Shown here piece after piece: positions 24,285-56,300 of a DNA stretch of 64,000 nucleotides (within the stretch, counting starts at the first letter, position 1; every line of letters begins with the position of its first letter). The DNA comes from Apostichopus japonicus (taxonomy: Eukaryota > Echinodermata > Holothuroidea > Aspidochirotida > Stichopodidae). The stretch is from positions 6,304,001 to 6,368,000 of the forward strand of contig NC_092576.1 in the NCBI RefSeq assembly GCF_037975245.1, written 5' to 3'. A model generated the notes under the pieces. That model made no database searches and had not been told where the DNA came from. It saw only the letters and a program-made list of their open reading frames with translations. The position numbers and the translations under genes were made by a program.

Positions 24285-25090
24285 TTTAATTTTTAAGCCA
24301 CAGATATTTATAATAAGTGCACTCTAAAAGTATTCTAACCACATATATTCCTAGGTAAAACTATTACGTAAGTGATATAACACACACATTCATCAATAGA
24401 CTAGCTATATCACTTGTCTCAGCCACAGATATTCAAATACAGTGGCGTAGCTAGATGTTTTGGCGCCCGGGTGCAAGAGTAGAAAATTGCGCCCTCCCCC
24501 TCACACTACTGAAAGAAAACTAAATTGCGCGCGAAGCGCACGGAAATTGTTGGTTATAGTTTTTCGGGCAAGTCGTTACAGCCCCCCCCCCCCCCCAAAT
24601 CAAATTGTGCTCCTACGTCTATGATATTTCCACCTTTAGAAATCTACTGCCTTGGAACTGTGTAATAAAATACCCGAATTTTCTTGACATGTAGTCATTA
24701 CAGAATACAGAACAGCATAAAGAAGAAATGAGAAAACAGTCGAAATGGACTGAAAAGAAATCACAATCTATAAATTTGCTAATAAAAACAACTACATTCA
24801 GTTCAGATTCTTATTAGTAACTGGAAAATATTCATGTCTGACGACGTATATCAATTTCGTCATGTTTTTCTGAAAAGTGCTTACACTTTTTACTCTCATA
24901 ATCCCATTTCAGCGCCCCTCTAAACCCGGCGCCTGGGGCACGTGCCCTCCCTTGACCCCCTAGCTACGCCTCTGTTCAAAGATAAGCTAAATTTACATGT
25001 TTCGTATGTATAGAAGCCACTGATATTCATAGACACATCTGTTATGTAAGCCACAGATATTCATACACAAATGTGTTTCGTATGTATTTG
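24285..25090. repeat. Old, scattered satellite monomers
   Basis: Diverged AAGCCACAGATATTCATA-type words at about 24295, 24420, 25015 and 25048 belong to the same family as the array that starts at 26.8 kb. They are interrupted by the 535-bp MITE. Confidence 0.6.
24440..24974. mobile_element. 535-bp hAT-like MITE
   Basis: Termini CAGTGGCGTAGCTAG and, inverted, CAGAGGCGTAGCTAG. The flanking octamers TTCAAATA (24432-24439) and TTCAAAGA (24975-24982) match at 7 of 8 positions. The left copy of the octamer follows a satellite monomer. Confidence 0.8.
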
Positions 25091-28650: not shown

Positions 28651-31600
28651 GTAGGTCTTGTAAGCCAGTGGTATCCATAGATACAAATGTATAAGTGAAT
28701 TAAGCAAATAAGCAATTATGTTCATAAGTTAGATAAGTAATAGTTGTAAGCAAAATATCTCAATAAATTAATATATTCGTTAGATCTCTAAGCCACATAT
28801 ATTCATAGTTTAATCATATTCGTTAAATTTTTAAGCCACATATATTAATATTTTAATATAAGTCACAGATATTCATAGATAAACCCCCTGTGTAAGTATT
28901 CAAAGCCACAGATATTCATAGATTAACCCCCTGTGTAAGTATTCTAAGCCACAGATATTCATAGAATAACCCCCTGTGTAAGTATTCTAAGCCACAGATA
29001 TTCATAGATTAACCCATGTGTAAGTATTCTAAGCCACAGATATTCATAGTTTAATCCTATTGATAAGTATTATAAGCCACAGATATTCATAGATTAACCC
29101 CCTGTGTGAGTATTCTAAGCCACATATATTCATAGATTAACCCCCTGTGTAAGTATTCTAAGCCACAGATATTCATAGATTAACCCCTTTGTAAGTATAA
29201 TAAGCCACAGATATTCATAGTTTAATCCTATTCGCAAGTATTCTAAGCCGAAGGTGTTCATAGTTTAATCCTATTCGCAAGTATTCTAAGCCGAAGATGT
29301 TCATAGTTTAATCCTATTCGTAACTATTCTAAGCCACAGATATTCATAGATTAACCCCCTGTGTAAGTATTCTAAGCCACAGATATTCATAGATTAACCC
29401 CTTTGTAAGTATAATAAGCCACAGATATTCATAGTTTAATCCTATTCGCAAGTATTCTAAGCCGAAGGTGTTCATAGTTTAATCCTATTCGCAAGTATTC
29501 TAAGCCGAAGATGTTCATAGTTTAATCCTATTCGTAAATATTCTAAGCCACAGATATCCATAGCTTAATCTCATTTGTATGTATTCTAAGACACAGATAT
29601 TCATAGATTAACCCCCTGTGTAAGTATTCTAAGCCACAGATATTCATAGATAAACCCCCTGTGTAAGTATTCAAAGCCACAGATATTCATAGATTAACCC
29701 CCTGTGTAAGTATTCTAAGCCACAGATATTCATAGATTAACCCCCTTTGTAAGTATAATAAGCCACAGATATTCATAGTTCAATCCTATTCGCAAGTATT
29801 CTAAGCCGAAGATGTTCATAGTTTAATCCTATTCGTAAATATTCTAAGCCACATATATCCATAGCTTAATCTCATTTGTATGTATTCTAAGCCACAGATA
29901 TTCATAGATTAACCCCCTGTGTATGTATTCTAAGCCACAGATATTCATAGATTAACCCCCTGTGTAAGTATTCTAAGCCACAGATATTCATAGATTAACC
30001 CCCTGTGTAAGAATTCTAAGCCACAGATATTCATAGATTACCCACTGTGTAAGTAATCTAAGCCACAGATATTCATAGATAAACCCCTTTGTAAGTATAA
30101 TAAGCCACAGATATTCATAGTTTAATCCTATTCGCAAGTATTCTAAGCCGAAGGTGTTCATAGTTTAATCCTATTCGCAAGTATTCTAAGCCGAAGATGT
30201 TCATAGTTTAATCCTATTCGTAAATATTCTAAGCCACAGATATCCATAGCTTAATCTCATTTGTATGTATTCTAAGACACAGATATTCATAGATTAACCC
30301 CCTGTGTAAGTATTCTAAGCCACAGATATTCATAGATAAACCCCCTGTGTAAGTATTCAAAGCCACAGATATTCATAGATTAACCCCCTGTGTAAGTATT
30401 CTAAGCCACAGATATTCATAGAATAACCCCCTGTGTAAGTATTCTAAGCCACAGATATTCATAGATTAACCCATGTGTAAGTATTCTAAGCCACAGATAT
30501 TCATAGTTTAATCCTATTGATAAGTATTATAAGCCACAGATATTCATAGATTAACCCCCTGTGTGAGTATTCTAAGCCACATATATTCATAGATTAACCC
30601 CCTGTGTAAGTATTCTAAGCCACAGATATTCATAGATTAACCCCTTTGTAAGTATAATAAGCCACAGATATTCATAGTTTAATCCTATTCGCAAGTATTC
30701 TAAGCCGAAGGTGTTCATAGTTTAATCCTATTCGCAAGTATTCTAAGCCGAAGATGTTCATAGTTTAATCCTATTCGTAAATATTCTAAGCCACATATAT
30801 TCATAGATTAACCCCCTGTGTAAGTATTCAAAGCCACAGATATTCATAGATTAACCCCCTGTGTAAGTATTCTAAGCCACAGATATTCATAGAATAACCC
30901 CCTGTGTAAGTATTCTAAGCCACAGATATTCATAGATTAACCCATGTGTAAGTATTCTAAGCCACAGATATTCATAGTTTAATCCTATTGATAAGTATTA
31001 TAAGCCACAGATATTCATAGATTAACCCCCTGTGTGAGTATTCTAAGCCACATATATTCATAGATTAACCCCCTGTGTAAGTATTCTAAGCCACAGATAT
31101 TCATAGATTAACCCCTTTGTAAGTAAAATAAGCCACAGATATTCATAGTTTAATCCTATTCGCAAGTATTCTAAGCCGAAGGTGTTCATAGTTTAATCCT
31201 ATTCGCAAGTATTCTAAGCCGAAGATGTTCATAGTTTAATCCTATTCGTAACTATTCTAAGCCACAGATATTCATAGATTAACCCCCTGTGTAAGTATTC
31301 TAAGCCACAGATATTCATAGATTAACCCCTTTGTAAGTATAATAAGCCACAGATATTCATAGTTTAATCCTATTCGCAAGTATTCTAAGCCGAAGGTGTT
31401 CATAGTTTAATCCTGATCGCAAGTATTCTAAGCCGAAGATGTTCATAGTTTAATCCTATTCGTAAATATTCTAAGCCACAGATATCCATAGCTTAATCTC
31501 ATTTGTATGTATTCTAAGACACAGATATTCATAGATTAACCCCCTGTGTAAGTATTCTAAGCCACAGATATTCATAGATTAACCCCCTGTGTAAGCATTC

Positions 31601-34600
31601 TAAGCCACAGATATTCATAGAATAACCCCCTGTGTAAGTATTCTAAGCCACAGATATTCATAGATTAACCCATGTGTAAGTATTCTAAGCCACAGATATT
31701 CATAGTTTAATCCTATTGATAAGTATTATAAGCCACAGATATTCATAGATTAACCCCCTGTGTGAGTATTCTAAGCCACATATATTCATAGATTAACCCC
31801 CTGTGTAAGTATTCTAAGCCACAGATATTCATAGATTAACCCCTTTGTAAGTATAATAAGCCACAGATATTCATAGTTTAATCCTATTCGCAAGTATTCT
31901 AAGCCGAAGGTGTTCATAGTTTAATCCTATTCGCAAGTATTCTAAGCCGAAGATGTTCATAGTTTAATCCTATTCGTAAATATTCTAAGCCACATATATT
32001 CATAGATTAACCCCCTGTGTAAGTATTCAAAGCCACAGATATTCATAGATTAACCCCCTGTGTAAGTATTCTAAGCCACAGATATTCATAGAATAACCCC
32101 CTGTGTAAGTATTCTAAGCCACAGATATTCATAGATTAACCCATGTGTAAGTATTCTAAGCCACAGATATTCATAGTTTAATCCTATTGATAAGTATTAT
32201 AAGCCACAGATATTCATAGATTAACCCCCTGTGTGAGTATTCTAAGCCACATATATTCATAGATTAACCCCCTGTGTAAGTATTCTAAGCCACAGATATT
32301 CATAGATTAACCCCTTTGTAAGTAAAATAAGCCACAGATATTCATAGTTTAATCCTATTCGCAAGTATTCTAAGCCGAAGGTGTTCATAGTTTAATCCTA
32401 TTCGCAAGTATTCTAAGCCGAAGATGTTCATAGTTTAATCCTATTCGTAACTATTCTAAGCCACAGATATTCATAGATTAACCCCCTGTGTAAGTATTCT
32501 AAGCCACAGATATTCATAGATTAACCCCTTTGTAAGTATAATAAGCCACAGATATTCATAGTTTAATCCTATTCGCAAGTATTCTAAGCCGAAGGTGTTC
32601 ATAGTTTAATCCTGATCGCAAGTATTCTAAGCCGAAGATGTTCATAGTTTAATCCTATTCGTAAATATTCTAAGCCACAGATATCCATAGCTTAATCTCA
32701 TTTGTATGTATTCTAAGACACAGATATTCATAGATTAACCCCCTGTGTAAGTATTCTAAGCCACAGATATTCATAGATTAACCCCCTGTGTAAGCATTCT
32801 AAGCCACAGATATTCATAGAATAACCCCCTGTGTAAGTATTCTAAGCCACAGATATTCATAGATTAACCCATGTGTAAGTATTCTAAGCCACAGATATTC
32901 ATAGTTTAATCCTATTGATAAGTATTATAAGCCACAGATATTCATAGATTAACCCCCTGTGTGAGTATTCTAAGCCACATATATTCATAGATTAACCCCC
33001 TGTGTAAGTATTCTAAGCCACAGATATTCATAGATTAACCCCTTTGTAAGTATAATAAGCCACAGATATTCATAGTTTAATCCTATTCGCAAGTATTCTA
33101 AGCCGAAGGTGTTCATAGTTTAATCCTATTCGCAAGTATTCTAAGCCGAAGATGTTCATAGTTCAATCCTATTCGTAAATATTCTAAGCCACATATATTC
33201 ATAGATTAACCCCCTGTGTAAGTATTCTAAGCCACAGATATTCATAGATTACCCCCTGTGTAAGTAATCTAAGCCACAGATATTCATAGATTAACCCCTT
33301 TGTAAGTATAATAAGCCACAGATATTCATAGTTTAATCCTATTCGCAAGTATTCTAAGCCGAAGGTGTTCATAGTTTAATCTTATTCGTAACTATTCTAA
33401 GCCACAGATATCCATAGCTTAATCTTATTTATATGTATTCTAAGCCACAGATATTCATAGATTAACCCCCTTTGTAAGTATAATAAGCCACAGATATTCA
33501 TAGTTTAATCCTATTCGTGAGTATTCTAAGCCGAAGATGTTCATAGTTTAATCCTATTCGTAAATATTCTAAGCCACAGATATCCATAGCTTAATCTCAT
33601 TTGTATGTATTCTAAGCCACAGATATTCATAGATTAACCCCCTTTGTAAGTATAATAAGCCACAGATATTCATAGTTCAATCCTATTCGCAAGTATTCTA
33701 AGCCGAAGATGTTCATAGTTTAATCCTATTCGTAAATATTCTAAGCCACATATATCCATAGCTTAATCTCATTTGTATGTATTCTAAGCCACAGATATTC
33801 ATAGATTAACCCCCTGTGTATGTATTCTAAGCCACAGATATTCATAGATTAACCCCCTGTGTAAGTATTCTAAGCCACAGATATTCATAGATTAACCCCC
33901 TGTGTAAGAATTCTAAGCCACAGATATTCATAGATTACCCACTGTGTAAGTAATCTAAGCCACAGATATTCATAGATAAACCCCTTTGTAAGTATAATAA
34001 GCCACAGATATTCATAGTTTAATCCTATTCGCAAGTATTCTAAGCCGAAGGTGTTCATAGTTTAATCATATTCGTAACTATTCTAAGCCACAGATATCCA
34101 TAGCTCAATCTTATTCGTATGTATTCTAAGCCACAGATATTCATAGATTAACCCCCTTTGTAAGTATAATAAGCCACAGATATTCATAGTTTAATCCTAT
34201 TCGCAAGTATTCTAAGCCGAAGATGTTCATAGTTTAATCCTATTCGTAAATATTCTAAGCCACATATATCCATAGCTTAATCTCATTTGTATGTATTCTA
34301 AGCCACAGATATTCATAGATTAACCCCCTGTGTAAGTATTCTAAGCCACAGATATTCATAGATTAACCCCCTGTGTAAGTATTCTAAGCCACAGATATTC
34401 ATAGATTAACCCCCTGTGTAAGTATTCTAAGCCACAGATATTCATAGATTACCCCCTGTGTAAGTATAATAAGCCACAGATATTCATAGATAAACCCCTT
34501 TGTAAGTATAATAAGCCACAGATATTCATAGATTAATCCTATTCGCAAGTATTCTAAGCCGAAGGTGTTCATAGTTTAATCCTATTCGTAACTATTCTAA

Positions 34601-37600
34601 GCCACAGATATCCATAGCTTAATCTTATTTGTATGTATTCTAAGCCACAGATATTCATAGATTAACCCCCTTTGTAAGTATAATAAGCCACAGATATTCA
34701 TAGTTTAATCCTATTCGCAAGTATTCTAAGCCGAAGATGTTCATAGTTTAATCCTATTCGTAAATATTCTAAGCCACAGATATCCATAGCTTAATCTCAT
34801 TTGTATGTATTCTAAGCCACAGATATTCATAGATTAACCCCCTGTGTAAGTATTCTAAGCCACAGATATTCATAGATTAACCCCCTGTGTAAGTATTCTA
34901 AGCAACAGATATTCATAGATTACTCCCTGTGTAAGTAATCTAAGCCACAGATATTCATAGATAAACCCCTTTGTAAGTATAATAAGCCACAGATATTCAT
35001 AGTTTAATCCTATTCGCAAGTATTCTAAGCCGAAGGTGTTCATAGTTTAATCCTATTCGTAACTATTCTAAGCCACAGATATCCATAGCTTAATCTTATT
35101 TGTATGTATTCTAAGCCACAGATATTCATAGATTAACCCCCTTTGTAAGTATAATAAGCCACAGATATTCATAGTTTAATCCTATTCGCAAGTATTCTAA
35201 GCCGAAGATGTTCATAGTTTAATCCTATTCGTAAATATTCTAAGCCACATATATCCATAGCTTAATCTCATTTGTATGTATTCTAAGCCACAGATATTCA
35301 TAGATTAACCCCCTGTGTATGTATTCTAAGCCACAGATATTCATAGATTAACCCCCTGTGTAAGTATTCTAAGCCACAGATATTCATAGATTAACCCCCT
35401 GTGTAAGAATTCTAAGCCACAGATATTCATAGATTACCCCCTGTGTAAGTAATCTAAGCCACAGATATTCATAGATAAACCCCTTTGTAAGTATAATAAG
35501 CCACAGATATTCATAGTTTAATCCTATTCGCAAGTATTCTAAGCCGAAGGTGTTCATAGTTTAATCCTATTCATAACTATTCTAAGCCACAGATATCCAT
35601 AGCTTAATCTTATTTGTATGTATTCTAAGCCACAGATATTCATAGATTAACCCCCTTTGTAAGTATAATAAGCCACAGATATTCATAGTTTAATCCTATT
35701 CGCAAGTGTTCTAAGCCGCAGATGTTCATAGTTTAATCCTATTCGTAAATTTTCTAAGCCACAGATATCCATAGCTTAATCTCATTTGTATATATTCTAA
35801 GCCACAGATATTCATAGATTAACCCCCTGTGTAAGTATTCTAAGCCACAGATATTCATGGATTAACCCCCTGTGTAAGTATTCTAAGCCACAGATATTCA
35901 TAGATTAGCCCCTGTGTAAGTATTCTAAGCAACAGATATTCATAGATTACCCCCTGTGTAAGTATTCTAAGCCACAGATATTCATAGATAAACCCCTTTG
36001 TAAGTATAATAAGCCACAGATATTCATAGTTTAATCCTATTCGCAAGTATTCTAAGCCGAAGGTGTTCATAGTTTAATCCTATTCGTAAATATTCTAAGC
36101 CACAGATATCCATAGCTTAATCTTATTTATATGTATTCTAAGCCACAGATATTCATAGATTAACCCCCTGTGTAAGTATTCTAAGCCACAGATATTCATA
36201 GATTAACCCCTTTGTAAGTATTCTAAGCCACAGATATTCATAGATTAACCCCCTGTGTAAGTATTCTAAGCCACAGATATTCATAGATTAACCCCCTGTG
36301 TAAGTATTCAAAGCCACAGATATTCATAGATTAACCCATGTGTAAGTATTCTGAGCCACAGATATTCATAGTTTAATCCTATTGATAAGTATTCTAAGCC
36401 ACAGATATTCATAGATTAACCCCCTGTGTAAGTATTCTAAGCCACAGATATTCATAGATTAACCCCTTTGTAAGTATAATAAGCCACAGATATTCATAGT
36501 TTAATCCTATTGATAAGTATTCTAAGCCACAGATATTCATAGATTACCCCCTGTGTAAGTAATTTAAGCCACAGATATTCATAGATAAACCCCTTTGTAA
36601 GTATAATAAGCCACAGATATTCATAGATTAATCCTATTTGCAAGTATTCTAAGCCGAAGGTGTTCATAGTTTAATCCTATTCGTAAATATTCTAAGCCAC
36701 ATATATCCATAGCTTAATCTCATTTGTATGTATTCTAAGCCACAGATATTCATAGATTAACCCCCTGTGTAAGTATTCTAAGCCACAGATATTCATAGAT
36801 TAACCCCCTGTGTAAGTATTCTAAGCCACAGATATTCATAGATTAACCCCCTGTGTAAGTATTCTAAGCCACAGATATTCATAGATTACCCCCTGTGTAA
36901 GTATAATAAGCCACAGATATTCATAGATAAACCCCTTTGTAAGTATAATAAGCCACAGATATTCATAGATTAATCCTATTCGCAAGTATTCTAAGCCGAA
37001 GGTGTTCATAGTTTAATCCTATTCGTAAATATTCTAAGCCACAGATATCCATAGCTTAATCTTATTTGTATGTATTCTAAGCCACAGATATTCAAAGATT
37101 AACCCCCTTTGTAAGTATAATAAGCCACAGATATTCATAGTTTAATCCTATTCGCAAGTATTCTAAGCCGAAGATGTTCATAGTTTAATCCTATTCGTAA
37201 ATATTCTAAGCCACAGATATCCATAGCTTAATCTCATTTGTATGTATTCTAAGCCACAGATATTCATAGATTAACCCCCTGTGTAAGTATTCTAAGCCAC
37301 AGATATTCATAGATTAACCCCCTGTGTAAGTATTCTAAGCAACAGATATTCATAGATTACTCCCTGTGTAAGTAATCTAAGCCACAGATATTCATAGATA
37401 AACCCCTTTGTAAGTATAATAAGCCACAGATATTCATAGTTTAATCCTATTCGCAAGTATTCTAAGCCGAAGGTGTTCATAGTTTAATCCTATTCGTAAC
37501 TATTCTAAGCCACAGATATCCATAGCTTAATCTTATTTGTATGTATTCTAAGCCACAGATATTCATAGATTAACCCCCTTTGTAAGTATAATAAGCCACA

Positions 37601-40600
37601 GATATTCATAGTTTAATCCTATTCGCAAGTATTCTAAGCCGAAGATGTTCATAGTTTAATCCTATTCGTAAATATTCTAAGCCACATATATCCATAGCTT
37701 AATCTCATTTGTATGTATTCTAAGCCACAGATATTCATAGATTAACCCCCTGTGTATGTATTCTAAGCCACAGATATTCATAGATTAACCCCCTGTGTAA
37801 GTATTCTAAGCCACAGATATTCATAGATTAACCCCCTGTGTAAGAATTCTAAGCCACAGATATTCATAGATTACCCCCTGTGTAAGTAATCTAAGCCACA
37901 GATATTCATAGATAAACCCTTTGTAAGTATAATAAGCCACAGATATTCATAGTTTAATCCTATTCGCAAGTATTCTAAGCCGAAGGTGTTCATAGTTTAA
38001 TCCTATTCATAACTATTCTAAGCCACAGATATCCATAGCTTAATCTTATTTGTATGTATTCTAAGCCACAGATATTCATAGATTAACCCCCTTTGTAAGT
38101 ATAATAAGCCACAGATATTCATAGTTTAATCCTATTCGCAAGTGTTCTAAGCCGCAGATATTCATAGTTTAATCCTATTCGTAAATTTTCTAAGCCACAG
38201 ATATCCATAGCTTAATCTCATTTGTATATATTCTAAGCCACAGATATTCATAGATTAACCCCCTGTGTAAGTATTCTAAGCCACAGATATTCATGGATTA
38301 ACCCCCTGTGTAAGTATTCTAAGCCACAGATATTCATAGATTAGCCCCTGTGTAAGTATTCTAAGCAACAGATATTCATAGATTACCCCCTGTGTAAGTA
38401 TTCTAAGCCACAGATATTCATAGATAAACCCCTTTGTAAGTATAATAAGCCACAGATATTCATAGTTTAATCCTATTCGCAAGTATTCTAAGCCGAAGGT
38501 GTTCATAGTTTAATCCTATTCGTAACTATTCTAAGCCACAGATATCCATAGCTTAATCTTATTTATATGTATTCTAAGCCACAGATATTCATAGATTAAC
38601 CCCCTTTGTAAGTATAATAAGCCACAGATATTCATAGTTTAATCCTATTCGCAAGTATTCTAAGCCGAAGATGTTCATAGTTTAATCCTATTCGTAAATA
38701 TTCTAAGCCACAGATATCCATAGCTTAACGCTCAATTGTACGTATTCTAAGCCACAGATATTCATAGATTAACCCCCTGTGTAAGTATTCTAAGCCACAG
38801 ATATTCATAGATTAACCCCTTTGTAAGTATTCTAAGCCACAGATATTCATAGATTAACCCCCTGTGTAAGTAGTTTAAGCCACAGATATTCATAGATTAA
38901 CCCCCTGTGTAAGTATTCAAAGCCACAGATATTCATAGATTAACCCATGTGTAAGTATTCTGAGCCACAGATATTCATAGTTTAATCCTATTGATAAGTA
39001 TTCTAAGCCACAGATATTCATAGATTAACCCCCTGTGTAAGTATTCTAAGCCACAGATATTCATAGATTAACCCCTTTGTAAGTATAATAAGCCACAGAT
39101 ATTCATAGTTTAATCCTATTGATAAGTATTCTAAGCCACAGATATTCATAGATTACCCCCTGTGTAAGTAATTTAAGCCACAGATATTCATAGATAAACC
39201 CCTTTGTAAGTATAATAAGCCACAGATATTCATAGTTTAATCCTATTTGCAAGTATTCTAAGCCGAAGGTGTTCATAGTTTAATCCTATTCGTAAATATT
39301 CTAAGCCACAGATATCCATAGCATAATCTTATTTGTATGTATTCTAAGCCACAGATATTCATAGATTAACCCCCTTTGTAAGTATAATAAGCCACAGATA
39401 TTCATAGTTTAATCCTATTCGCAAGTATTCTAAGAAGAAGATGTTCATAGTTTAATCCTATTCGTAAATATTCTAAGCCACAGATATCCATAGCTTAATC
39501 TCATTTGTATGTATTCTAAGCCACAGATATTCATAGATTAAACCCCTGTGTAAGTATTCTAAGCCACAGATATTCATAGATTAACCCCCTGTGTAAGTAT
39601 TCTAAGCCACAGATATTCATAGATTAACCCCCTGTGTAAGTAATCTAAGTCACAGATATTCATAGATTAACCCCTTTGTAAGTATAATAAGCCACAGATA
39701 TTCATAGTTTAATCATATTCGCAAGTATTCTTAGCCGAAGGTGTTCATAGTTTAATCCTATTCGTAACTATACTAAGCCACAGATATCCATAGCTTAATC
39801 TTATTTGTATGTATTCTAAGCCACAGATATTCATAGATTAAACCCCTGTGTAAGTATTCTAAGCCACAGATATTCATAGATTACCCCCTTTGTAAGTAAT
39901 CTAAGCCACAGATATTCATAGATTAACCCCTTTGTAAGTATTCTAAGCCGAAGATGTTCATAGTTTAATCCTATTCGTAAATATTCTAAGCCACAGATAT
40001 CCATAGCTTAATCTCATTTGTATGTATTCTAAGCCACAGATATTCCTAGATTAACCCCCTTTGTAAGTATTCTAAGCCACAGATATTCATATATTATTCC
40101 CCTGTGTAAGTATTCTAAGCCACAGATATTCATAGATTAACCCCCTGTGTAAGTATTCTAAGCCACAGAATTTCATAGATAAACCCCTTTGTAAGTATAA
40201 TAAGCCACAGATATTCATAGTTTAATCCTATTCGCAAGTATTCTAAGCCGAAGGTGTTCATAGTTTAATCCTATTCGTAACTATTCTAAGCCACAGATAT
40301 CCATAGCTTAATCTTATTTATATGTATTCTAAGCCACAGATATTCATAGATTAACCCCCTTTGTCAGTATAATAAGCCACAGATATTCATAGTTTAATCC
40401 TATTCGCAAGTATTCTAAGCCGAAGATGTTCATAGTTTAATCCTATTCGTAAATATTCTAAGCCACAGATATCCATAGCTTAACGCTCAATTGTACGTAT
40501 TCTAAGCCACAGATATTCATAGATTAACCCCCTGTGTAAGTATTCTAAGCCACAGATATTCATAGATTAACCCCTTTGTAAGTATTCTAAGCCACAGATA

Positions 40601-43600
40601 TTCATAGATTAACCCCCTGTGTAAGTAGTTTAAGCCACAGATATTCATAGATTAACCCCCTGTGTAAGTATTCAAAGCCACAGATATTCATAGATTAACC
40701 CATGTGTAAGTATTCTGAGCCACAGATATTCATAGTTTAATCCTATTGATAAGTATTCTAAGCCACAGATATTCATAGATTAACCCCCTGTGTAAGTATT
40801 CTAAGCCACAGATATTCATAGATTAACCCCTTTGTAAGTATAATAAGCCACAGATATTCATAGTTTAATCCTATTGATAAGTATTCTAAGCCACAGATAT
40901 TCATAGATTACCCCCTGTGTAAGTAATTTAAGCCACAGATATTCATAGATAAACCCCTTTGTAAGTATAATAAGCCACAGATATTCATAGTTTAATCCTA
41001 TTTGCAAGTATTCTAAGCCGAAGGTGTTCATAGTTTAATCCTATTCGTAAATATTCTAAGCCACAGATATCCATAGCATAATCTTATTTGTATGTATTCT
41101 AAGCCACAGATATTCATAGATTAACCCCCTTTGTAAGTATAATAAGCCACAGATATTCATAGTTTAATCCTATTCGCAAGTATTCTAAGAAGAAGATGTT
41201 CATAGTTTAATCCTATTCGTAAATATTCTAAGCCACAGATATCCATAGCTTAATCTCATTTGTATGTATTCTAAGCCACAGATATTCATAGATTAAACCC
41301 CTGTGTAAGTATTCTAAGCCACAGATATTCATAGATTAACCCCCTGTGTAAGTATTCTAAGCCACAGATATTCATAGATTAACCCCCTGTGTAAGTAATC
41401 TAAGTCACAGATATTCATAGATTAACCCCTTTGTAAGTATAATAAGCCACAGATATTCATAGTTTAATCATATTCGCAAGTATTCTTAGCCGAAGGTGTT
41501 CATAGTTTAATCCTATTCGTAACTATACTAAGCCACAGATATCCATAGCTTAATCTTATTTGTATGTATTCTAAGCCACAGATATTCATAGATTAAACCC
41601 CTGTGTAAGTATTCTAAGCCACAGATATTCATAGATTACCCCCTTTGTAAGTAATCTAAGCCACAGATATTCATAGATTAACCCCTTTGTAAGTATTCTA
41701 AGCCGAAGATGTTCATAGTTTAATCCTATTCGTAAATATTCTAAGCCACAGATATCCATAGCTTAATCTCATTTGTATGTATTCTAAGCCACAGATATTC
41801 CTAGATTAACCCCCTTTGTAAGTATTCTAAGCCACAGATATTCATATATTATTCCCCTGTGTAAGTATTCTAAGCCACAGATATTCATAGATTAACCCCC
41901 TGTGTAAGTATTCTAAGCCACAGAATTTCATAGATTAACCTTCATGTGTAAGTATTCTAAGCCACAGATATTCATAGATTAACCCCCTGTGTAAGTATTC
42001 TAAGCCACAGATATTCATAGATTAACCCCCTGTGTAAGTATAATAAGACACAGATATTCATAGATTAACCCCCTGTGTAAGTATTCTAAGCCACAGATAT
42101 TCATAGCTTAATCCTATTGATAAGTATTCTAAGCCACAGATATTCATAGATTAACCCCCTGTGTAAGTATTCTAAGCCACAGATATTCATAGATTACCCA
42201 CTGTGTAAGTAATCTAAGCCACAGATATTCATAGATTAACCCCTTTGTAAGTATAATAAGCCACATATATTCATAGTTTAATTCTATTCGCAAGTATTCT
42301 AAGCCGAAGTTGTTCATAGTTTAATCCTATTCGTAACTATTCTAAGCCACAGATATCCATAGCTTAATCTTATTTGTATGTATTCTAAGCCAAAGATATT
42401 CATAGATTAACCCCCTGTGTAAGTATTCTAAGCCACAGATATTCATAGATTAACCCCTGTGTAAGTATTCTAAGCCACAGATATTCATAGATTAACCCCC
42501 TGTGTAAGTATTCTAAGCCACAGATATTCATAGATTAACCCCTTTGTAAGTATTCTAAGCCACAGATATTCATAGATTAACCCCCTGTGTAAGTATTCTA
42601 AGCCACAGATATTCATAGATTAACCCCCTGTGTAAGTAATCTAAGCCACAGATATCCATAGCTTAATCTTATTTGTATGTATTCTAAGCCACAGATATTC
42701 ATAGATTAACCCCCTTTGTAAGTATAATAAGCCACAGATATTCATAGTTTAATCCTATTCGCAAGTATTCTAAGCCGAAGATGTTCATAGTTTAATCCTA
42801 TTCGTAAATATTCTAAGCCACAGATATCCATAGCTTAATCTCATTTGTATGTATTCTAAGCCACAGATATTCATAGATTAACCCCCTGTGTAAGTATTCT
42901 AAGCCACAGATATTCATAGATTAACCCCCTGTGTAAGTATTCTAAGCCACAGATATTCATAGATTAACCCCCTGTGTAAGTAATCTAAGTCACAGATATT
43001 CATAGATTAACCCCTTTGTAAGTATAATAAGCCACAGATATTCATAGTTTAATCCTATTCGCAAGTATTCTAAGCCGAAGTTGTTCATAGTTTAATCCAA
43101 TTTGTAACTATTCTAAGCCACAGATATCCATAGCATAATCTTATTTGTATGCATTCTAAGCCACAGATATTCATAGATTACCCCCTTTGTAAGTAATCTA
43201 AGCCACAGATATTCATAGATTAACCCCTTTGTAAGTATAATAAGCCACAGATATTCATAGTTTAATCCTTTTCGCAAGTATTCTAAGCCGAAGTTGTTCA
43301 TAGTTTAATCCAATTCGTAACTATTCTAAGCCACAGATATCCATAGCATAATCTTATTTGTATGCATTCTTAGCCACAGATATTCATAGATTACCCCCTT
43401 TGTAAGTAATCTAAGCCACAGATATTCATAGATTAACCCCCTTTGTAAGTATTCTAAGCCGAAGATGTTCATAGTTTAATCCTATTCGTAAATATTCTAA
43501 GCCACAGATATCCATAGCTTAATCTCATTTGTATGTATTCTAAGCCACAGATATCCATAGCTTAATCTTATTAGTATGTATTCTAAGCCACAGATATTCA

Positions 43601-46600
43601 TAGATTAACCCCCTTTGTAAGTATAATAAGCCACAGATATTCATAGTTTAATCCTATTCGTAAATATTCTAAGCCACAGATATCCATAGCTTAATCTCAT
43701 TTGTATGTATTCTAAGCCACAGATATTCATAGATTACCCCCTTTTTAAGTAATCTAAGCCACAGATATCCATAGATTAACCCCTTTGTAAGTATAATAAG
43801 CCACAGATATTCATAGTTCAATCCTATTCGCAAGTATTCTAAGCCGAAGTTGTTCATAGTTTAATCCAATTCGTAACTATTCTAAGCCACAGATATCCAT
43901 AGCATAATCTTATTTGTATGCATTCTAAGCCACAGATATTCATAGATTACCCACTTTGTAAGTAATCTAAGCCACAGATATTCATAGATTAACCCCCTTT
44001 GTAAGTATTCTAAGCCGAAGATGTTCATAGTTTAATCCTATTCGTAAATATTCTAAGCCACAGATATCCATAGCTTAATCTCATTTGTATGTATTCTAAG
44101 CCACAGATATCCATAGCTTAATCTTATTAGTATGTATTCTAAGCCACAGATATTCATAGATTAACCCCCTTTGTAAGTATAATAAGCCACAGATATTCAT
44201 AGTTTAATCCTATTCGCAAGTATTCTAAGCCGAAGGTGTTCATAGTTTAATCCTATTCGTAAATATTCTAAGCCACAGATATCCATAGCTTAATCTCATT
44301 TGTATGTATTCCAAGCCACAGATATTCATAGATTAACCCCCTGTGAAAGTATTCTAAGCCACAGATATTCATAGATTAACCCCCTGTGTAAGTATTCTAA
44401 GCCACAGATATTCATAGATTAACCCCCTGTGTAAGTATTCTAAGCCACAGAATTTCATAGATTAACCCCCATGTGTAAGTATTCTAAGCCACAGATATTC
44501 ATAGATTATCCCCTGTATAAGTAATCTTAGCCACAGATATTCATAGATTAACCCCCTGTGTAAGTATAATAAGCCACAGATATTCATAGTTTAATCCTAT
44601 TTGCAAGTATTCTAAGCCGAAGATGTTCATAGTTTAATCCTATTCGTAAATATTCTAAGCCACAGATATCCATAGATTAATCTCATTTGTATGTATTCTA
44701 AGCCACAGATATCCATAGATTAACCCCCTTTGTAAGTATAATAAGCCACAGATATTCATAGTTTAATCCTATTCGCAAGTATTCTAAGCCGAAGATGTTC
44801 ATAGTTTAATCCTATTCGTAAATATTCTAAGCCACAGATATCCATAGCTTAATCTCATTTGTATGTATTCTAAGCCACAGATATTCATAGATTAACCCCC
44901 TTTGTAAGTATTCTAAGCCACAGATATTCATAGATTATTCCCCTGTGTAAGTATTCTAAGCCACAGATATTCATAGATTAACCCCCTGTGTAAGTATTCT
45001 AAGCCACAGAATTTCATAGATTAACCCCCATGTGTAAGTATTCTAAGCCACAGATATTCATAGATTAAGCAAATGTGTAAGTATTCTAAGCCACAGATAT
45101 TCATAGATTAACTCCCTGTATAAGTATTCTAAGCCACAGATATTCATAGATTAACCCCTGTGTAAGTATAATAAGCCACAGATATTCATAGTTTAATCCT
45201 ATTCGCAAGTATTCTAAGCCGAAGGTGTTCATAGTTTAATCCTATTCGTAAATATTCTAAGCCACAGATATCCATAGCATAATCTTATTTGTATGCATTC
45301 TAAGCCACATATATTTCATAGATTTACCCCCTTTGTAAGTATAATAAGCCACAGATATTCATAGTTTAATCCTATTCGCAAGTATTCTAAGCCGAAGATG
45401 TTCATAGTTTAATCCTATTCGTAAATATTCTAAGCCACAGATATCCATAGCTTAATCTCATTTGTATATATTCTAAGCCACAGATATTCATAGATTAACC
45501 CCCTTTGTAAGTATTCTAAGCCACAGATATTCATATATTATTCCCCTGTGTAAGTATTCTAAGCCACAGATATTCATAGATTAACCCCCTGTGTAAGTAT
45601 TCTAAGCCACAGAATTTCATAGATTAACCTTCATGTGTAAGTATTCTAAGCCACAGATATTCATAGATTAAGCAAATGTGTAAGTATTCTAAGCCACAGA
45701 TATTCATAGATTAACTCCCTGTATAAGTATTCTAAGCCACAGATATTCATAGATTAACCCCTGTGTAAGTATGATAAGCCACGGATATTCATAGTTTAAT
45801 CCTATTCGCAAGTATTCTAAGCCGAAGGTGTTCATAGTTTAATCCTATTCGTAACTATTCTAAGCCACAGATATCCATAGCATAATCTTATTTGTATGCA
45901 TTCTAAGCCACAGATATTCATAGATTAACCCCCTTTGTAAGTATAATAAGCCACAGATATTCATAGTTTAATCCTATTCCCAAGTATTCTAAGCCGAAGA
46001 TGTTCATAGTTTAATCCTATTCGTAAATATTCTAAGCCACTGATATTCATAGATTAATCTTTTTTGTAAGTATTCTAAGCCACAGATATTCATAGATTAA
46101 CCCCTGTGTAAGTATTCTAAGCCACAGATATTCATAGATTAACTCCCTGTGTAAGTAGTCTAAGCCACAGATATTCATAGATTAACCCCGTGTGTAAGTA
46201 TTCTAAGCCACAGATATTCATAGATTAACCCTTGTGTAAGTAGTCTAAGCCACAGATATTCATAGATTAACCCCCTTTGTAAGTATTCTAAGCCACAGAT
46301 ATTCATAGATTAACCCCATGTGTGAGTATTCTAAGCCACAGATATTCATAGTTTAATCTTATTTGTAAGTATTCTAAGCCACAGATATTCATAGATTAAC
46401 CCCTGTGTAAGTAATCTAAGCCACAGATATTCATAGATTAACCCATGTGTAAGTATTCTAAGCCATAGATATTCATAGATTAACCCCATGTGTAAGTATT
46501 CTAAGCCACAGATATTCATAGATTAACCCATGTGTAAGTATTCTAAGCCACAGATATTCATAGTTTAATCCTATTGATAAGTATTCTAAGACACAGACAT

Positions 46601-48128
46601 TCATAGATTAACCCCTTTGTAAGTATAATAAGCCACAGATATTCATAGTTTAATCCTATTCGCAAGTATTCTAAGCCGAAGGTGTTCATAGTTTAATCCT
46701 ATTCGCAACTATTCTAAGCCACAGATATTCATAGATTAACCCATGTGTAAGTATTCTAAGCCACAGATATTCATAGTTTAATCCTATTGATAAGTATTCT
46801 AAGCCACAGATATTCATAGATTAACCCCCTTGTGTAAGTAATCTAAGCCACAAATATTCATAGTTTAATCCTATTGATAAGTATTCTAAGCCACAGATAT
46901 TCATAGCTTAATCTTATTTGTAAGTATTCTAAGCCACAGATATTCATAGATTAACCCCCTTGTGTAAGTATTCTAAGCCACAGATATTCATAGATTAACC
47001 CCCTGTGTAAGTATTCTAAGCCACAGATATTCATAGATTAACCTCCTGTGTAAGTATTCTAAGCCACAGATATTCATAGATTAACCCCCTGTGTTATTAT
47101 TCTAAGCCACAGATATTCATAGATTAACCCCTTGTGTTAGTATTCTAAGCCACAGATATTCATAGATTAACCCCCTGTGTTAGTATTCTAAGCCACAGAT
47201 ATTCATAGATTAACCCCCTGTGTAAGTATTGTAAGCCACAGATATTTATAGATTAACCCCCTGTGTAAGTATTCTAAGCCACAGATATTCATAGAATAAC
47301 CCCCTGAGTTTGTATTCTAAGCCACAGATATTCATAGATTAACCCCCTGTGTAAGTATTCTAAGCCACAGATATTCCGTGTAAGTATTCTAAGCCACAGA
47401 TATTCATAGTTTAATCCTATTGATAAGTATTCTAAGCCACAGATATTCATAAATTAACCCCATGTGTAAGTATTCTAAGCCACAGATATTCATAGTTTAA
47501 CCCACTGTGTAAGTATTCTAAGCCACAGATATTCATAGATTAATCCTATTAATAAGTATTCTAACCCACATATATTCATAGTTTAATCCTTTTCTTAAGT
47601 TTTCTAAGCCACAAATATTCATAGTTTAATTTTAATCATAAGTATTCTAAGCCACAGATATTCATAGTTTGATCATATTCGTAATTATTTTATGCCACGT
47701 TATTCATAGTTTATTCTTATTCGTAAGTATTCTAAGCCTCAGATATTAATAGTTTTATACTATTGATGAGTATTCTAACCTGTGATATTCATAGTTTAAT
47801 CCTATATGTCAGTTTTCTTAGTCACAGATATTCATAGTTTAAGTAAATTCGTAAGTATTCTAAGTCACAGATATTCTTAGTTCAAGTATATTCGTAAGTA
47901 TTCTAAGCCACATAGCCTATATTTATAGTTTAATCATATTTATAAGTATTTTAAGCCACAGATATTCATAGTTTAATCCTATTCGTAAGTTTTCTAACCC
48001 ACAAATAATCATAGTTTAATTTTAATCATAAGTATTCTATGCCACAGCTATTCTTAGTTTAATCCTATTCGTAAGCATTCTTAGCCACATATATTCATAT
48101 CGTTTAATCCTATTCGTAAGTATTCTGA
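28650..48128. repeat. Satellite subfamily B, 42-43-bp unit, higher-order arranged
   Basis: Units have the core AAGCCACAGATATTCATAG with second halves ATTAACCCCCTGTGTAAG, TTTAATCCTATTCGCAAG or CTTAATCTCATTTGTATG, then TATTCT. A sister unit has GCCGAAGGTGTTCATAG. Long blocks are repeated nearly exactly: offset 1199 bp (30.5-33.1 kb), 2436 bp (34.3-38.5 kb) and 1755 bp (38.7-42 kb). The last 500 bp decay into loosely related units. No gene lies inside. Minus-strand frames with period 14 residues are satellite artefacts. Confidence 0.97.
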
Positions 48129-50275: not shown

Positions 50276-50354
50276 TTAAGAATGGGAGTCGGAATTAAAT
50301 ATATCCATGTACATGTACATCTGACCGTTGATCCGTTTCCACAGGGCAATAAAT
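50276..50354 (-). CDS. SL3 terminal exon 4
   Basis: Acceptor TTTCCCTACAG; one base completes lysine, then FIALWKRINGQMYMYMDIF, NSDSHS and TAA. Its match to SL1 exon 4 (LWKR-NG---Y-DIFN) confirms both terminal exons. Confidence 0.88.
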
Positions 50355-53300
50355 CTGTAGGGAAATATGAGATAAATTAACAGGGACAATTATAATGGTG
50401 AATCTTACGAGGACTTGCTGTCCTAACTAGATAAAAAATAAAGCCCTCATGCAGTGTCATGTGACGAGTTGACCATACCGTTCCATTGGTCGTGAGACTT
50501 TTCACCAATCGAAATGCAACCAACATATTATGTCAATGACAAGCCTAAAGTATCTTACTGCCTGCCTCAAACTCAGCCACAATACTACTTCATGTACTGT
50601 CAGGCTGAAGGTAAGCTTCAATACATCAAGTATTATTATTCTCATACTGAACCAAAATACCTCAAATACTGCCCCCAACTTGCTAAACCACAATATGGAA
50701 CGCACAGTCACCATCTAGCTAAACCGCAATACCCCAGATACTGCCACCAACAAGCTTAACCACAATATGGAACGCACAGCCACCATCTAGCTAAACCTCA
50801 AAACCTCAAATACTGCCACCAACAAGTTTAACCACAATACGGAACGCACAACCACCATCTAGCTAAAACCTCAATACCTCAAATACTGCCATCAACTAGC
50901 TAAACCACAACATGGAACGCACAGCCACCATCTAGCTAAACCTGAATACCTTTAATACTGCCTACCTCCAAATAGACTTCCACACTCTTCTTAATATTAT
51001 CATTAAGCGACTACCCACTCCTTGCGTTCTGTCACTCTCAAACTAAACCACGTACCTCCAGTACAGTCACGCAATAACCGTAGCTCAAACCTCAAATACT
51101 GCAACCCTTTAAAATAGACCCCCGGTCGTACCCCTGGTACTATCCTCATCAAGTGAAGCCCATATTTCTCAAATACTTCCACCCTGTACTCTACTTAATG
51201 TACTCTACTTAATGTACTCTAATGTACTCTATTTAATGCAATATAACTCTTCGGATTTACAGCTACACTACACAGACTGTAAGTTTCGTTACAAACACTA
51301 ATCTAGAATGCGGTGCCTGCAAACCTTATGTAGACATAACACTCCACTGTACTCTGTACTATATGATGCTGCCCCTGAGTAGAAAAACATGAATACATCA
51401 TACAATGTCACCATCAAGATTAACATTTGTACCTATTAAGCTGACGAACGCAAAGTAAAAATTTTCAAAACAAACATAATATATGTTTTGGACACCAATT
51501 AGGAGCTTTCTTCGTGAATTAATAATAAACAGAGAGGAATAGATAGTTCCCTATAACGTAGTGATAAAGCAACGTAACTAATTGTCTGGCAGGCTTACTT
51601 TCTCTGAACTATTACATCAACATTGTCAAATAAAGGCCATTAAGCAAGAAAGGGATACTTAAGTCAACAGAACTAGTTATAAAGTGACTTTCTGCCGTCT
51701 ATTTTTGACAGCACCCAAGGTGATGTCATGAGTATCTCAGAACTAGCTATGAAATGATTTACGTCCCTTTAGTTTCGAAAGCACCCGGGGCATATCAGAA
51801 AGATGTACATCAGTCAACAGAGCTAGTTATGCAGAGGAGTTATCACGTCAACAGAAGTGGTTGTAAAAATGACTTACTCAACCTTATCTCTGATATTATC
51901 CGAAGCCATTGCAGGGAAGGTATACCTAAGTCAACAGAACTATTTATAAAGTGACTTATATACTCTTATTTTCGACAGCACTCGAGACAATAGCAAGAAC
52001 TCGATCCCTAGATCAATAGAACTAGCTATGAAGTGATTTACGTCCCTTTAGTTTCGAAAGCAACCGGGGCATATCAGAAAGATGTACATCAGTCAACAGA
52101 GCTTGTAATACAGGGAGATACCTACGTCAACAGAAGTGGTTGTAAAAATGACTTACTCAACCTTATCTCTGACATTATCCGAGGCCATTGCATGGAAGGT
52201 ATACCTAAGTCAACAGAACTATTTATAAAGTGACTTATATACTCTTATATTCGACAGCACTCGAGACAATAGCAAGAACGCGACCCCTATATTTCGACAG
52301 CACCCAATGTGACGGTAGGAGTATCTCAGTCAACAGAACTAGCTATGAAGTGATTTGCTTCCCTATATTTCGACAGCACCCAATGTGACGGTAGGAGTAT
52401 CTCAGTCAACAGAACTAGCTATGAAGTGATTTGCTTCCCTATATTTCGACAGCACCCAATGTGACGGTAGGAGTATCTCAGTCAACAGAACTAGCTATGA
52501 AGTGATTTGCTTCCCTATATTTCGACAGCACCCAATGTGACGGTAGGAGTATCTCAGTCAACAGAACTAGCTATGAAGTGATTTACTTCCCCTATTTTCG
52601 ACAGCACCCAATGTGACGGTAGGAGTATCTCAGTCAACAGAACTAGCTATGAAGTGATTTGCTTCCCTATATTTCGACAGCACCCAATGTGACGGTAGGA
52701 GTATCTCAGTCAACAGAACTAGCTATGAAGTGATTTGCTTCCCTATATTTCGACAGCACCCAATGTGACGGTAGGAGTATCTCAGTCAACAGAACTAGCT
52801 ATGAAGTGATTTGCTTCCCTATATTTCGACAGCACCCAATGTGACGGTAGGAGTATCTCAGTCAACAGAACTAGCTATGAAGTGATTTGCTTCCCTATAT
52901 TTCGACAGCACCCAATGTGACGGTAGGAGTATCTCAGTCAACAGAACTAGCTATGAAGTGATTTACTTCCCCTATTTTCGACAGCACCCAATGTGACGGT
53001 AGGAGTATCTCAGTCAACAGAACTAGCTATGAAGTGATTTGCTTCCCTATATTTCGACAGCACCCAATGTGACGGTAGGAGTATCTCAGTCAACAGAACT
53101 AGCTATGAAGTGATTTACTTCCCCTATTTTCGACAGCACCCAATGTGACGGTAGGAGTATCTCAGTCAACAGAACTAGCTATGAAGTGATTTGCTTCCCT
53201 ATATTTCGACAGCACCCAATGTGACGGTAGGAGTATCTCAGTCAACAGAACTAGCTATGAAGTGATTTGCTTCCCTATATTTCGACAGCACCCAATGTGA

Positions 53301-56300
53301 CGGTAGGAGTATCTCAGTCAACAGAACTAGCTATGAAGTGATTTGCTTCCCTATATTTCGACAGCACCCAATGTGACGGTAGGAGTATCTCAGTCAACAG
53401 AACTAGCTATGAAGTGATTTACTTCCCCTATTTTCGACAGCACCCAATGTGACGGTAGGAGTATCTCAGTCAACAGAACTAGCTATGAAGTGATTTGCTT
53501 CCCTATATTTCGACAGCACCCAATGTGACGGTAGGAGTATCTCAGTCAACAGAACTAGCTATGAAGTGATTTGCTTCCCTATATTTCGACAGCACCCAAT
53601 GTGACGGTAGGAGTATCTCAGTCAACAGAACTAGCTATGAAGTGATTTGCTTCCCTATATTTCGACAGCACCCAATGTGACGGTAGGAGTATCTCAGTCA
53701 ACAGAACTAGCTATGAAGTGATTTGCTTCCCTATATTTCGACAGCACCCAATGTGACGGTAGGAGTATCTCAGTCAACAGAACTAGCTATGAAGTGATTT
53801 GCTTCCCTATATTTCGACAGCACCCAATGTGACGGTAGGAGTATCTCAGTCAGCAGAACTAGCTATGAAGTGATTTACTTCCCCTATTTTTGACAGCACC
53901 CAATGTGACGGTAGGAGTATCTCAGTCAACAGAACTAGCTATGAAGTGATTTGCTTCCCTATATTTCGACAGCACCCAATGTGACGGTAGGAGTATCTCA
54001 GTCAACAGAACTAGCTATGAAGTGATTTGCTTCCCTATATTTCGACAGCACCCAATGTGACGGTAGGAGTATATCAGTCAACAGAACTAGCTATGAAGTG
54101 ATTTGCTTCCCTATATTTCGACAGCACCCAATGTGACGGTAGGAGTATCTCAGTCAACAGAACTAGCTATGAAGTGATTTGCTTCCCTATATTTCGACAG
54201 CACCCAGTGTGACGGTAGGAGTATCTCAGTCAACAGAACTAGCTATGAAGTGATTTGCTTCCCTATATTTCGACAGCACCCAATGTGACGGTAGGAGTAT
54301 CTCAGTCAACAGAACTAGCTATGAAGTGATTTGCTTCCCTATATTTCGACAGCACCCAATGTGACGGTAGGAGTATCTCAGTCAACAGAACTAGCTATGA
54401 AGTGATTTGCTTCCCCTATTTTCGACAGCACCCAATGTGACGGTAGGAGTATCTCAGTCAACAGAACTAGCTATGAAGTGATTTGCTTCCCTATATTTCG
54501 ACAGCACCCAATGTGACGGTAGGAGTATCTCAGTCAACAGAACTAGCTATGAAGTGATTTGCTTCCCTATATTTCGACAGCACCCAATGTGACGGTAGGA
54601 GTATCTCAGTCAACAGAACTAGCTATGAAGTGATTTGCTTCCCTATATTTCGACAGCACCCAATGTGACGGTAGGAGTATCTCAGTCAACAGAACTAGCT
54701 ATGAAGTGATTTGCTTCCCCTATTTTCGACAGCACCCAATGTGACGGTAGGAGTATCTCAGTCAACAGAACTAGCTATGAAGTGATTTGCTTCCCTATAT
54801 TTCGACAGCACCCAATGTGACGGTAGGAGTATCTCAGTCAACAGAACTAGCTATGAAGTGATTTGCTTCCCTATATTTCGACAGCACCCAATGTGACGGT
54901 AGGAGTATCTCAGTCAACAGAACTAGCTATGAAGTGATTTACTTCCCCTATTTTCGACAGCACCCAATGTGACGGTAGGAGTATCTCAGTCAACAGAACT
55001 AGCTATGAAGTGATTTGCTTCCCTATATTTCGACAGCACCCAATGTGACGGTAGGAGTATCTCAGTCAACAGAACTAGCTATGAAGTGATTTGCTTCCCT
55101 ATATTATCGACAGCCCCCGAGACCACATCAGAAAGGGATTCCATCAGTCAACAGAACTAGTTATGCATTAAAGAGTTACCTAAGTCAAATAACTATAGCT
55201 GTGAGGTGACTTACTTCCCCTTATCCCCGACAGTGCCATCGTCACGGAAGAGGGTGTAGACTCCTCTAGAGTAGACCAGATCACCACCAGCTGGGCCGAT
55301 CTCCTCTTCTACGATTTTGACTTTCTTCATACCTTTATCATAAACATGCTGGAAAGCCTTAGCTGCTCCTGAAAGGTATTAAACCGAAAAAGGAAAATAA
55401 ACTTGTTAGTATTACCTAAAGATTGAAAACAAATGCACAATATTACAAACATATTTTTTGAGACACACATACAAGCCTGACTCAAGGTTTGTTGCACAGC
55501 GAAGCCGAGGACCTAATAAAATTTAATAAACAGAAACATGGGCAAAGAAACATAATTGTCTAGCTGTGTTTTCGTAGCTTGTTCGTTATTGAGACTCTCT
55601 TAAGACGCTCTTTTCTTTTCTAAGTTTCTCAAAATTCAATGAAGATTATTTTAAAAAATTGAATAAGTGCTTAATTTTACTTGACGTAAGCATATAATTA
55701 TATGTAACGGTGCTTACGTAATCATAACAGTTTACAAACAAAGCATTTGCTGTTTCTAGGAACTGAAATTGTTTCTTGCATCACTTGAACCGTTCAACGA
55801 TTCCGTTTCTTGGTTTTCATATACTATAACGACGGAAAAGCCCTGCTCCCACAACCCCCTCCCTCAACCACCTACAAGAAAAATTCATGCCATCCTCACC
55901 TTCACGTCCTTGTCCCATGGGATGCCCAGCTGGGAGAGTCTTACAGTCTTCAGTGTAGAGTTGACTCATGGCACGGAGGTCTCCGTTTCCGAACAGTTCT
56001 TCAATTTTACGGTCAGTAGCCTCTATTCCGTCTCGGAGACCTTCACGTTACAGAAAAATAAAAACAAATGTGTAGTCTCCCAGATTATGGTGACGCTTCA
56101 GAAGTTCAGAGATAATTGGCGATATATGACGTATGTGACATCTATAAAAGATATAGCAATGATGATGATGATGATGATGACGAGGATGAAGATGACGATA
56201 ATGATAACAATGATGAGTACGATGGCGATAACAATGACGTATGAGATGCGATAACAATGACGTATGACGGTGAGAATGACCGTTACGGTGACGAAGACGA

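What the first reader, a model, noticed from the sequence alone, without database searches (positions are those of the whole stretch)
51600..55368. Intronic minisatellite built from the gene's own exon end and splice donor
The 76-bp unit in SL3 intron 3, read on the minus strand, aligns with the last part of SL3 exon 3 and the start of the intron: CCGT.AC..TGG..CTGTCG, ATA.GGGGAAGTAA.TCAC and TCA.AGCTA.GTT.T.TTGACT are shared in order. The exon encodes conserved family residues, so the exon is the likely source and the array the derivative. About 37 copies now sit 3' of the true donor. Six retain a GT in donor context (GGGGAAGTAAAT); the others carry GC. The intron thus contains a ladder of decoy donors, most of them disarmed, which could affect splicing of this gene.
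Basis: partly seen in the sequence, partly recalled or inferred. Interest (0 to 1): 0.72.

Follow-up and report, generated by a model that had tools for sequence, protein, structure and literature searches.

The report
Intron repeats copied from exon end
In an echinoderm gene, the end of one exon and its splice signal were copied into the following intron and multiplied into a tandem repeat; this kind of structure is already described in lancelets, and here it is probably harmless.

Summary
A 76-bp minisatellite (52285-55118, minus strand) fills most of intron 3 of a SnoaL-like gene. Its unit aligns across the exon 3/intron 3 boundary (57 of 80 columns; 0 of 2000 shuffles as good). The stronger proof is an older, decayed layer next to the core array: 52198-52013 matches 55250-55066 in order over 195 columns, 140 of 176 paired positions identical, 27 of 35 in the exon part. 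Genome searches find the unit only at this locus. The closest paralog found lacks the array, so the exon is the likely source. 'Disarmed' does not follow, because the GC copies descend from few founders. By U1 pairing the GT copies are weaker than the real donor, and 18 other GT sites in the intron pair at least as well as it. This is the 'mirage' kind of minisatellite known from lancelet Adh3, globin, TnC and PGBD5 genes. Mitochondrial code and gene order show an echinoderm host. New member of a known kind; an effect on splicing is untested.

The parts
55900..56044 (-). SL3 exon 2 (SnoaL-like), upstream limit approximate
   Evidence: tblastn/tblastx with paralogs; donor AAG|GTGAGG, intron from 55899
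55215..55368 (-). SL3 exon 3; its last 36 or so nt are the exonic source of the repeat
   Evidence: tblastn 46% and 39% to SL1 and SL2; exon 2+3 translation matches PF12680 at E 4.9e-5, 24.3 bits, below the curated cut-off of 27; boundaries
55207..55217 (-). true 5' splice site GAA|GTAAGTCA; reading on past it gives TAA at once
55119..55214 (-). intron 3 start: the source's intronic half, a short degenerate unit and the beginning of the first edge unit (55136 downwards)
52285..55118 (-). core minisatellite, 76 bp x 37.3, 98% matches; 6 GT and 31 GC at the donor-homologous site (the GC count includes edge unit 55136)
52586..54942 (-). span of the six GT copies of the donor, G of GT at 54942, 53878, 53422, 53118, 52966, 52586; U1 pairing -3.3 against -5.6 kcal/mol for the true donor
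51640..52284 (-). older, decayed layer, including a 279-bp period x 2.0 (94% matches, 51739-52289)
52013..52198 (-). best old copy of the boundary: collinear with 55250-55066 over 195 columns, 140/176 identical (exon part 27/35)
51740..51931 (-). second old copy of the same segment (D5)
50276..50354 (-). SL3 terminal exon 4, acceptor CCCTACAG|ATTTATTG
   Evidence: tblastx with SL1; sequence; acceptor

Best explanation
A mirage-type minisatellite. Shown by sequence: a segment of about 190 nt, made of the last 36 or so nt of exon 3, the 5' splice site and the first 150 or so nt of the intron, was duplicated downstream within intron 3, and related 76-bp units now form a tandem array whose middle is almost homogeneous and whose edges are decayed. 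Inferred: the first copies arose by slippage or unequal exchange; later unequal exchange or conversion amplified and homogenised a founder unit with GGGAAGCAAAT, with a linked GGGGAAGTAAAT variant kept in six copies. Inferred: the array is normally spliced out with intron 3 and has no function of its own. The real donor lies next to the exon and pairs better with U1 than the GT sites of the core array, and any extension of exon 3 meets TAA immediately, so use of a copy would give a truncated product that surveillance probably removes.
For: Cross-boundary alignment 57/80, 0 of 2000 shuffles. Old copy collinear over 195 columns, score 153 against at most 40 in 1000 shuffles; exon part 27/35, intron part 113/141. 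Anchored exon test: 0 of 3000 controls reach the sum over 7 unit types, also without the last 6 nt. Among 9 SL1-SL3 boundaries tested, only the SL3 exon 3 donor has a nearby copy that no control reaches (0 of 300; next is the SL2 exon 2 donor, intron part only, 9 of 300). SL1, SL2 and the C13 paralog keep the exon end but not the array. Genome-wide the unit core is found only here, 37 matches with up to 3 mismatches, backward control 0. Homogeneous centre, decayed edges. Immediate TAA past the donor and U1 pairing ranks. The closest paralog carries two pieces of its own exon 3 in its intron 3 (37 nt 97%, 32 nt 91%); 30 nt of the first are found nowhere else in the genome.
Against: The exon part of the core unit alone is not significant in a free local alignment (668 of 2000). 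The free local match of the intron start alone (0 of 2000) falls on the short degenerate unit, not on the boundary register. For the old copy's exon part alone, without the splice-site bases, 12 of 3025 real control positions do as well. Unit type d8, and d3 without donor-side bases, show no exon match. No RNA data: splicing, silence of the array and length variation were not tested. The core unit holds another GT (TGG|GTGCTGTC) that pairs at -5.0, close to the true donor's -5.6. U1 duplex energy is a crude donor score.
Confidence: 0.87

Rival explanations
1. The repeat is purely intron-derived (or an unrelated satellite that landed in the intron), and the match to the exon end is chance.
For: Exon part of the core unit alone is not above chance in a free local alignment (668 of 2000); unit type d8, and d3 without donor-side bases, show no exon match.
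Against: Anchored test 0 of 3000 for the sum of 7 unit types, also without the splice-site bases; one gapped alignment runs through the boundary with 27/35 exonic and 113/141 intronic positions identical; the satellite was not found elsewhere.
Confidence: 0.08
2. The direction is reversed: the exon 3 end was copied or converted from the satellite.
For: SL3's exon end (DDGTVGDKGK) differs from SL1/SL2 (ADGKVAQ.GK) at several residues.
Against: The C13 paralog, without the array, has an exon end that aligns to SL3's without gaps, and the DG.V...GK pattern is shared by SL1, SL2, SL3 and the C13 paralog.
Confidence: 0.03
3. The array works as a splicing decoy or tuner: its many donor-like sites titrate U1 or compete with the weak true donor, so array length changes the amount of SL3 protein.
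For: The true donor is the weakest of the six SL1-SL3 exon 2 and exon 3 donors by U1 pairing (-5.6 against -6.8 to -12.2); two old donor copies equal it and TGG|GTGCTGTC in 37 core units reaches -5.0; any use gives an immediate stop.
Against: Donor-derived GT copies of the core pair at only -3.3; 18 other GT sites pair at least as well as the true donor, none in the 76-bp array. In lancelets such arrays are reported not to disturb splicing (PMC3087553 and PMC3902484, passages read).
Confidence: 0.07

Closest known systems
'Mirage' minisatellites of lancelets: globins BflGb6 and BflGb9, Adh3, TnC, PGBD5 (PMC3087553 and PMC3902484: passages read, for the first including part of the abstract; the original Adh paper, PMC117041, not held, known only through these)
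   Same: Tandem, minisatellite-like duplication of a gene's own exon-intron boundary; many but not all copies carry splice signals; units at the cluster edge escape homogenisation; both 5' and 3' boundaries are known to duplicate.
   Different: Echinoderm host, not lancelet; a SnoaL-like gene; about 37 near-identical units plus an older layer, against 3 or 6 units of 150-160 bp in BflGb6; most copies here have GC instead of GT. Length instability and normal splicing are reported there, not tested here.
Internal tandem repeats at exon-intron boundaries of human paralogs (PMC2812944, passages read)
   Same: Minisatellites that may create novel introns through cryptic splice sites when they lie at an exon-intron boundary.
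   Different: There units of about 30 bp repeated about 4 times, half of them in coding sequence, in recent duplicates; here a long array wholly inside an intron that already existed.
Ordinary intronic minisatellite (for example the 27-bp unit in abalone TSSK1-like intron 3, PMC6905558, passages read)
   Same: Intronic minisatellite in a marine invertebrate gene.
   Different: The passages seen report no exon origin; here the unit comes from the host gene's exon end and donor.

Membership tests
mirage minisatellite (tandem repeats of an exon-intron boundary) | repeat unit contains the end of the adjoining exon and the start of the intron | tested here: met
   weaker for the core unit's exon part taken alone
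mirage minisatellite (tandem repeats of an exon-intron boundary) | tandem, minisatellite-like arrangement next to the true boundary | tested here: met
   the TRF array begins 97 nt from the donor
mirage minisatellite (tandem repeats of an exon-intron boundary) | concerted evolution inside the array, diverged units at its edges | tested here: met
mirage minisatellite (tandem repeats of an exon-intron boundary) | splice signals present in many but not all copies | tested here: met
   GT in 6 of 37 core copies, GC in 31; two old copies with GAGTAAGT
mirage minisatellite (tandem repeats of an exon-intron boundary) | length polymorphism or instability | not testable with these tools
   one assembly only, no second allele
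mirage minisatellite (tandem repeats of an exon-intron boundary) | normal splicing despite the copies | not testable with these tools
   no RNA data
mirage minisatellite (tandem repeats of an exon-intron boundary) | host lancelet, as in the passages read (a matter of range, not of structure) | tested here: not met
   host is an echinoderm by mitochondrial code and gene order
dispersed satellite or transposon-derived repeat | copies at many unrelated loci | tested here: not met
   only this locus (the DNA search skips very common words, so not a full proof)

The most novel reading that the evidence does not exclude
Short pieces of an exon are repeatedly copied into the following intron in this gene family (SL3: boundary array; C13 paralog: two exon 3 pieces in intron 3). 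Echinoderm introns would then be fed by their own exons, and mirage formation would be a general animal process that adds cryptic splice sites and, at SL3, a length-variable weak brake on expression.
Probability: 0.12. Interest if true: 0.6.

Novelty: new member of a known kind. Interest (0 to 1): 0.42.

Why it matters
Mirage arrays were described in a handful of lancelet genes and proposed there as raw material for new introns. A clear case in an echinoderm, with old and young layers preserved side by side, suggests that the process is not peculiar to lancelets and shows likely steps: a boundary duplication, a smaller tandem unit, then homogenisation with loss of the splice signal in most copies. 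It also warns annotators that donor-like copies lie downstream of a true donor.

Tried and rejected
blastn of boundary, unit and old layer against the window with the array masked: at E up to 0.01 the unit and the old layer match only the SL3 exon 3 end and intron start. tblastn for exon 4 of the paralogs found nothing; tblastx found it between SL1 and SL3, not for SL2. The anchored test was one base off; redone. Host from assembly span in papers: Alitta virens (671.2 Mb, 14 chromosomes, 24 scaffolds; passages seen) rejected because C16 (46.04 Mb) and C13 (26.78 Mb) fit none of the chromosomes in its table; the phylum was settled by the mitochondrial contig. Prevalence: 30 P450 exon loci (of 96 matches listed) were tested and 0 of 30 have an exon piece repeated in the flank, but the same test misses SL3 itself in its 3.2-kb locus L008 (which does not reach the old layer), so it is blind to old events; it does find the C13 paralog. 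The 70-bp array in intron 2 of the C13 paralog shows no convincing exon match (best scores 10-20, no control run). Three other arrays of the window (58, 72 and 43 bp) match no SL exon (blastn E up to 0.5; the longer output had been cut). Viral contigs: no exact match to 30 nt of the unit; genome contigs was not scanned. Paper searches: 8, 15, 16, 23, 28, 29, 57 for the phenomenon and 46, 48, 52 for the host; most results were seen as listings only (20 of 311 listed: 15 of 1028), and they show nothing called a mirage outside lancelets. A C. elegans paper on intronic minisatellites and splicing (PMC4039745, passages) was not relevant to origin.
Full report
What is there. The window lies on contig C16 of a 671.6-Mb, 35-contig assembly. 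Three SnoaL-like genes lie on the minus strand. Their exon 2+3 translations match Pfam SnoaL_2 at E 4.9e-5 (SL3), 1.9e-5 (SL1) and 5.3e-6 (SL2); only SL2 is above the curated cut-off, the other two are just below it. SL3 has exon 2 (ending 55900), exon 3 (55368-55215) and terminal exon 4 (50354-50276); intron 3 runs from 55214 to 50355. Its stretch from about 55165 to 51640 is repetitive: a homogeneous core of 76-bp units at 52285-55118 and decayed units at both edges.

Is it more than chance? The core unit aligns across the boundary with 57 identities in 80 columns, score 53; the best of 2000 dinucleotide shuffles is 39. Split at the boundary, the exon part alone is not significant in a free local alignment (668 of 2000 as good); the intron start alone is (0 of 2000), but its best match falls on a short degenerate unit a little downstream, not on the boundary register. 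I therefore asked whether homology really crosses into the exon. Anchored at the donor, seven unit types together score 107 against at most 56 at 3000 real control positions, and 75 against at most 68 without the last six exon bases. Single types range from 0 or 1 of 3000 to none (d8; d3 without the donor-side bases). The clearest evidence is an old copy at 52198-52013. It follows 55250-55066 in order over 195 alignment columns, 140 of 176 paired positions identical, 27 of 35 in the exon part and 113 of 141 in the intron part; 1000 shuffles reach at most 40 against 153. The exon part of that copy alone, without splice-site bases, is matched by 12 of 3025 control positions. A second old copy lies at 51931-51740.

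Direction and uniqueness. SL1 and SL2 have the exon but a different intron start and no such array. The nearest paralog found, on C13, has an exon 3 end that aligns to SL3 without gaps and no tandem array in intron 3; the intron starts are no more alike than shuffles (score 19, mean 18.8 of 500). Searching the genome with 1001 bp of array and old layer finds only this locus, 7 matches; the unit core with up to three mismatches gives 37 matches, all in this array, and none for the backward control. The exon boundary itself (259 bp) is matched only by itself.

History of the array. Of 38 units, 26 are identical; 31 have GC and 6 GT at the donor-homologous site, one is truncated. All six GT units carry a linked GGGG variant; two GGGG units have GC. 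At that site the exon and the old units d1, d3, d5 and d7 have GT, d0 and d4 have AT, d8 neither, and the edge unit next to the exon has GC, so GC is probably derived. It is spread by amplification, so the number of GC copies says nothing about selection.

Splicing. Past the true donor the reading frame hits TAA at once, so any extended exon 3 would be truncated. Pairing with the first bases of U1 (sequence recalled) is -5.6 kcal/mol for the true donor, -3.3 for GT copies and -0.6 for GC copies. In intron 3, 18 other GT sites pair at least as well as the true donor: none in the core array; nine lie in the old layer, two of these being donor copies (52156, 51877; listed). The best GT of the core unit is a different one, TGG|GTGCTGTC, -5.0 in 37 copies. 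By this crude measure the donor-derived copies of the core are poor decoys. This is not proof of silence.

Relatives of the event. The C13 paralog has two pieces of its own exon 3 in intron 3 (37 nt at 97%, 32 nt at 91%). Thirty nt of that exon, searched with up to three mismatches, occur in the genome only in the exon and in this intron. Eight loci of six further C13 paralogs, and SL1 and SL2, show no exon-overlapping repeat at E up to 1e-3; 0 of 30 P450 loci do, but those tests miss old events and some loci hold little of intron 3.

Host. Contig C35 is a 16099-bp mitochondrial genome. COX1 begins with the expected STNHKDIGTLY under code 9 (AAA as Asn) and with STKHKDIGTLY under code 5 (the expected motif is recalled; only these two codes were tried). 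The order cox1-nad4L-cox2-atp6-cox3-nad3-nad4-nad6(-), with nad1 and nad2 on the plus strand, was checked with Pfam for ten reading frames. By recalled knowledge that is an echinoderm, of the sea-urchin/sea-cucumber arrangement; P450 hits lie on contigs numbered up to C23, which would fit a sea cucumber with 23 chromosomes (inference). The species is unknown.

Comparison. Minisatellite-like tandem duplications of exon-intron boundaries are known as 'mirages' in lancelet Adh3 and globins (PMC3087553, passages and part of the abstract) and are reported for TnC and PGBD5 (PMC3902484, passages). Those passages say that splicing seems not to be disturbed and that arrays vary in length. The present array meets the structural features; instability and splicing could not be tested here. 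In searches, mostly seen as listings and in a library that lacks most subscription journals, I saw nothing called a mirage outside lancelets; the nearest outside is a study of tandem repeats in human paralogs (PMC2812944, passages).

Noticed in passing
L010 (C13:26390113-26393283): Closest SL3 paralog found: two pieces of its own exon 3 (37 and 32 nt) lie in its intron 3, and its intron 2 is almost filled by a 70-bp tandem array (317-1473) ending about 30 nt before exon 3.
   Followed up: partly
28859-47376: 18.5-kb array of a 43-bp unit (432 copies) whose unit contains TTTGTAAGTATTC, a donor-like string on the plus strand; related sequence at 26879-28642 and in single copies near 24300 and 25030. 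Host gene, if any, not found.
   Followed up: partly
14400-14466: Repeats of GGCCTATACTACAT start a few bases after the SL2 exon 2 donor (9 of 300 controls as good): perhaps a small intron-only relative of the same process.
   Followed up: partly
14069-14244: 58-bp array in SL2 intron 2 just before exon 3; its units contain GTAAG; no match to SL exons.
   Followed up: partly
50650-50962: A second, 72-bp minisatellite in the same SL3 intron 3, near exon 4; no match to SL exons.
   Followed up: partly
G000:C13:7685715-7939746: Six SL paralogs within about 250 kb (loci L016-L018, L020-L024), three of them nearly identical at the exon 3 donor: a young expansion of the SnoaL-like family.
   Followed up: no
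G000:C29:14745-31219: Pieces of mitochondrial COX1 on a second contig, with TGA codons inside: a nuclear mitochondrial insert or misassembled mitochondrial DNA.
   Followed up: no
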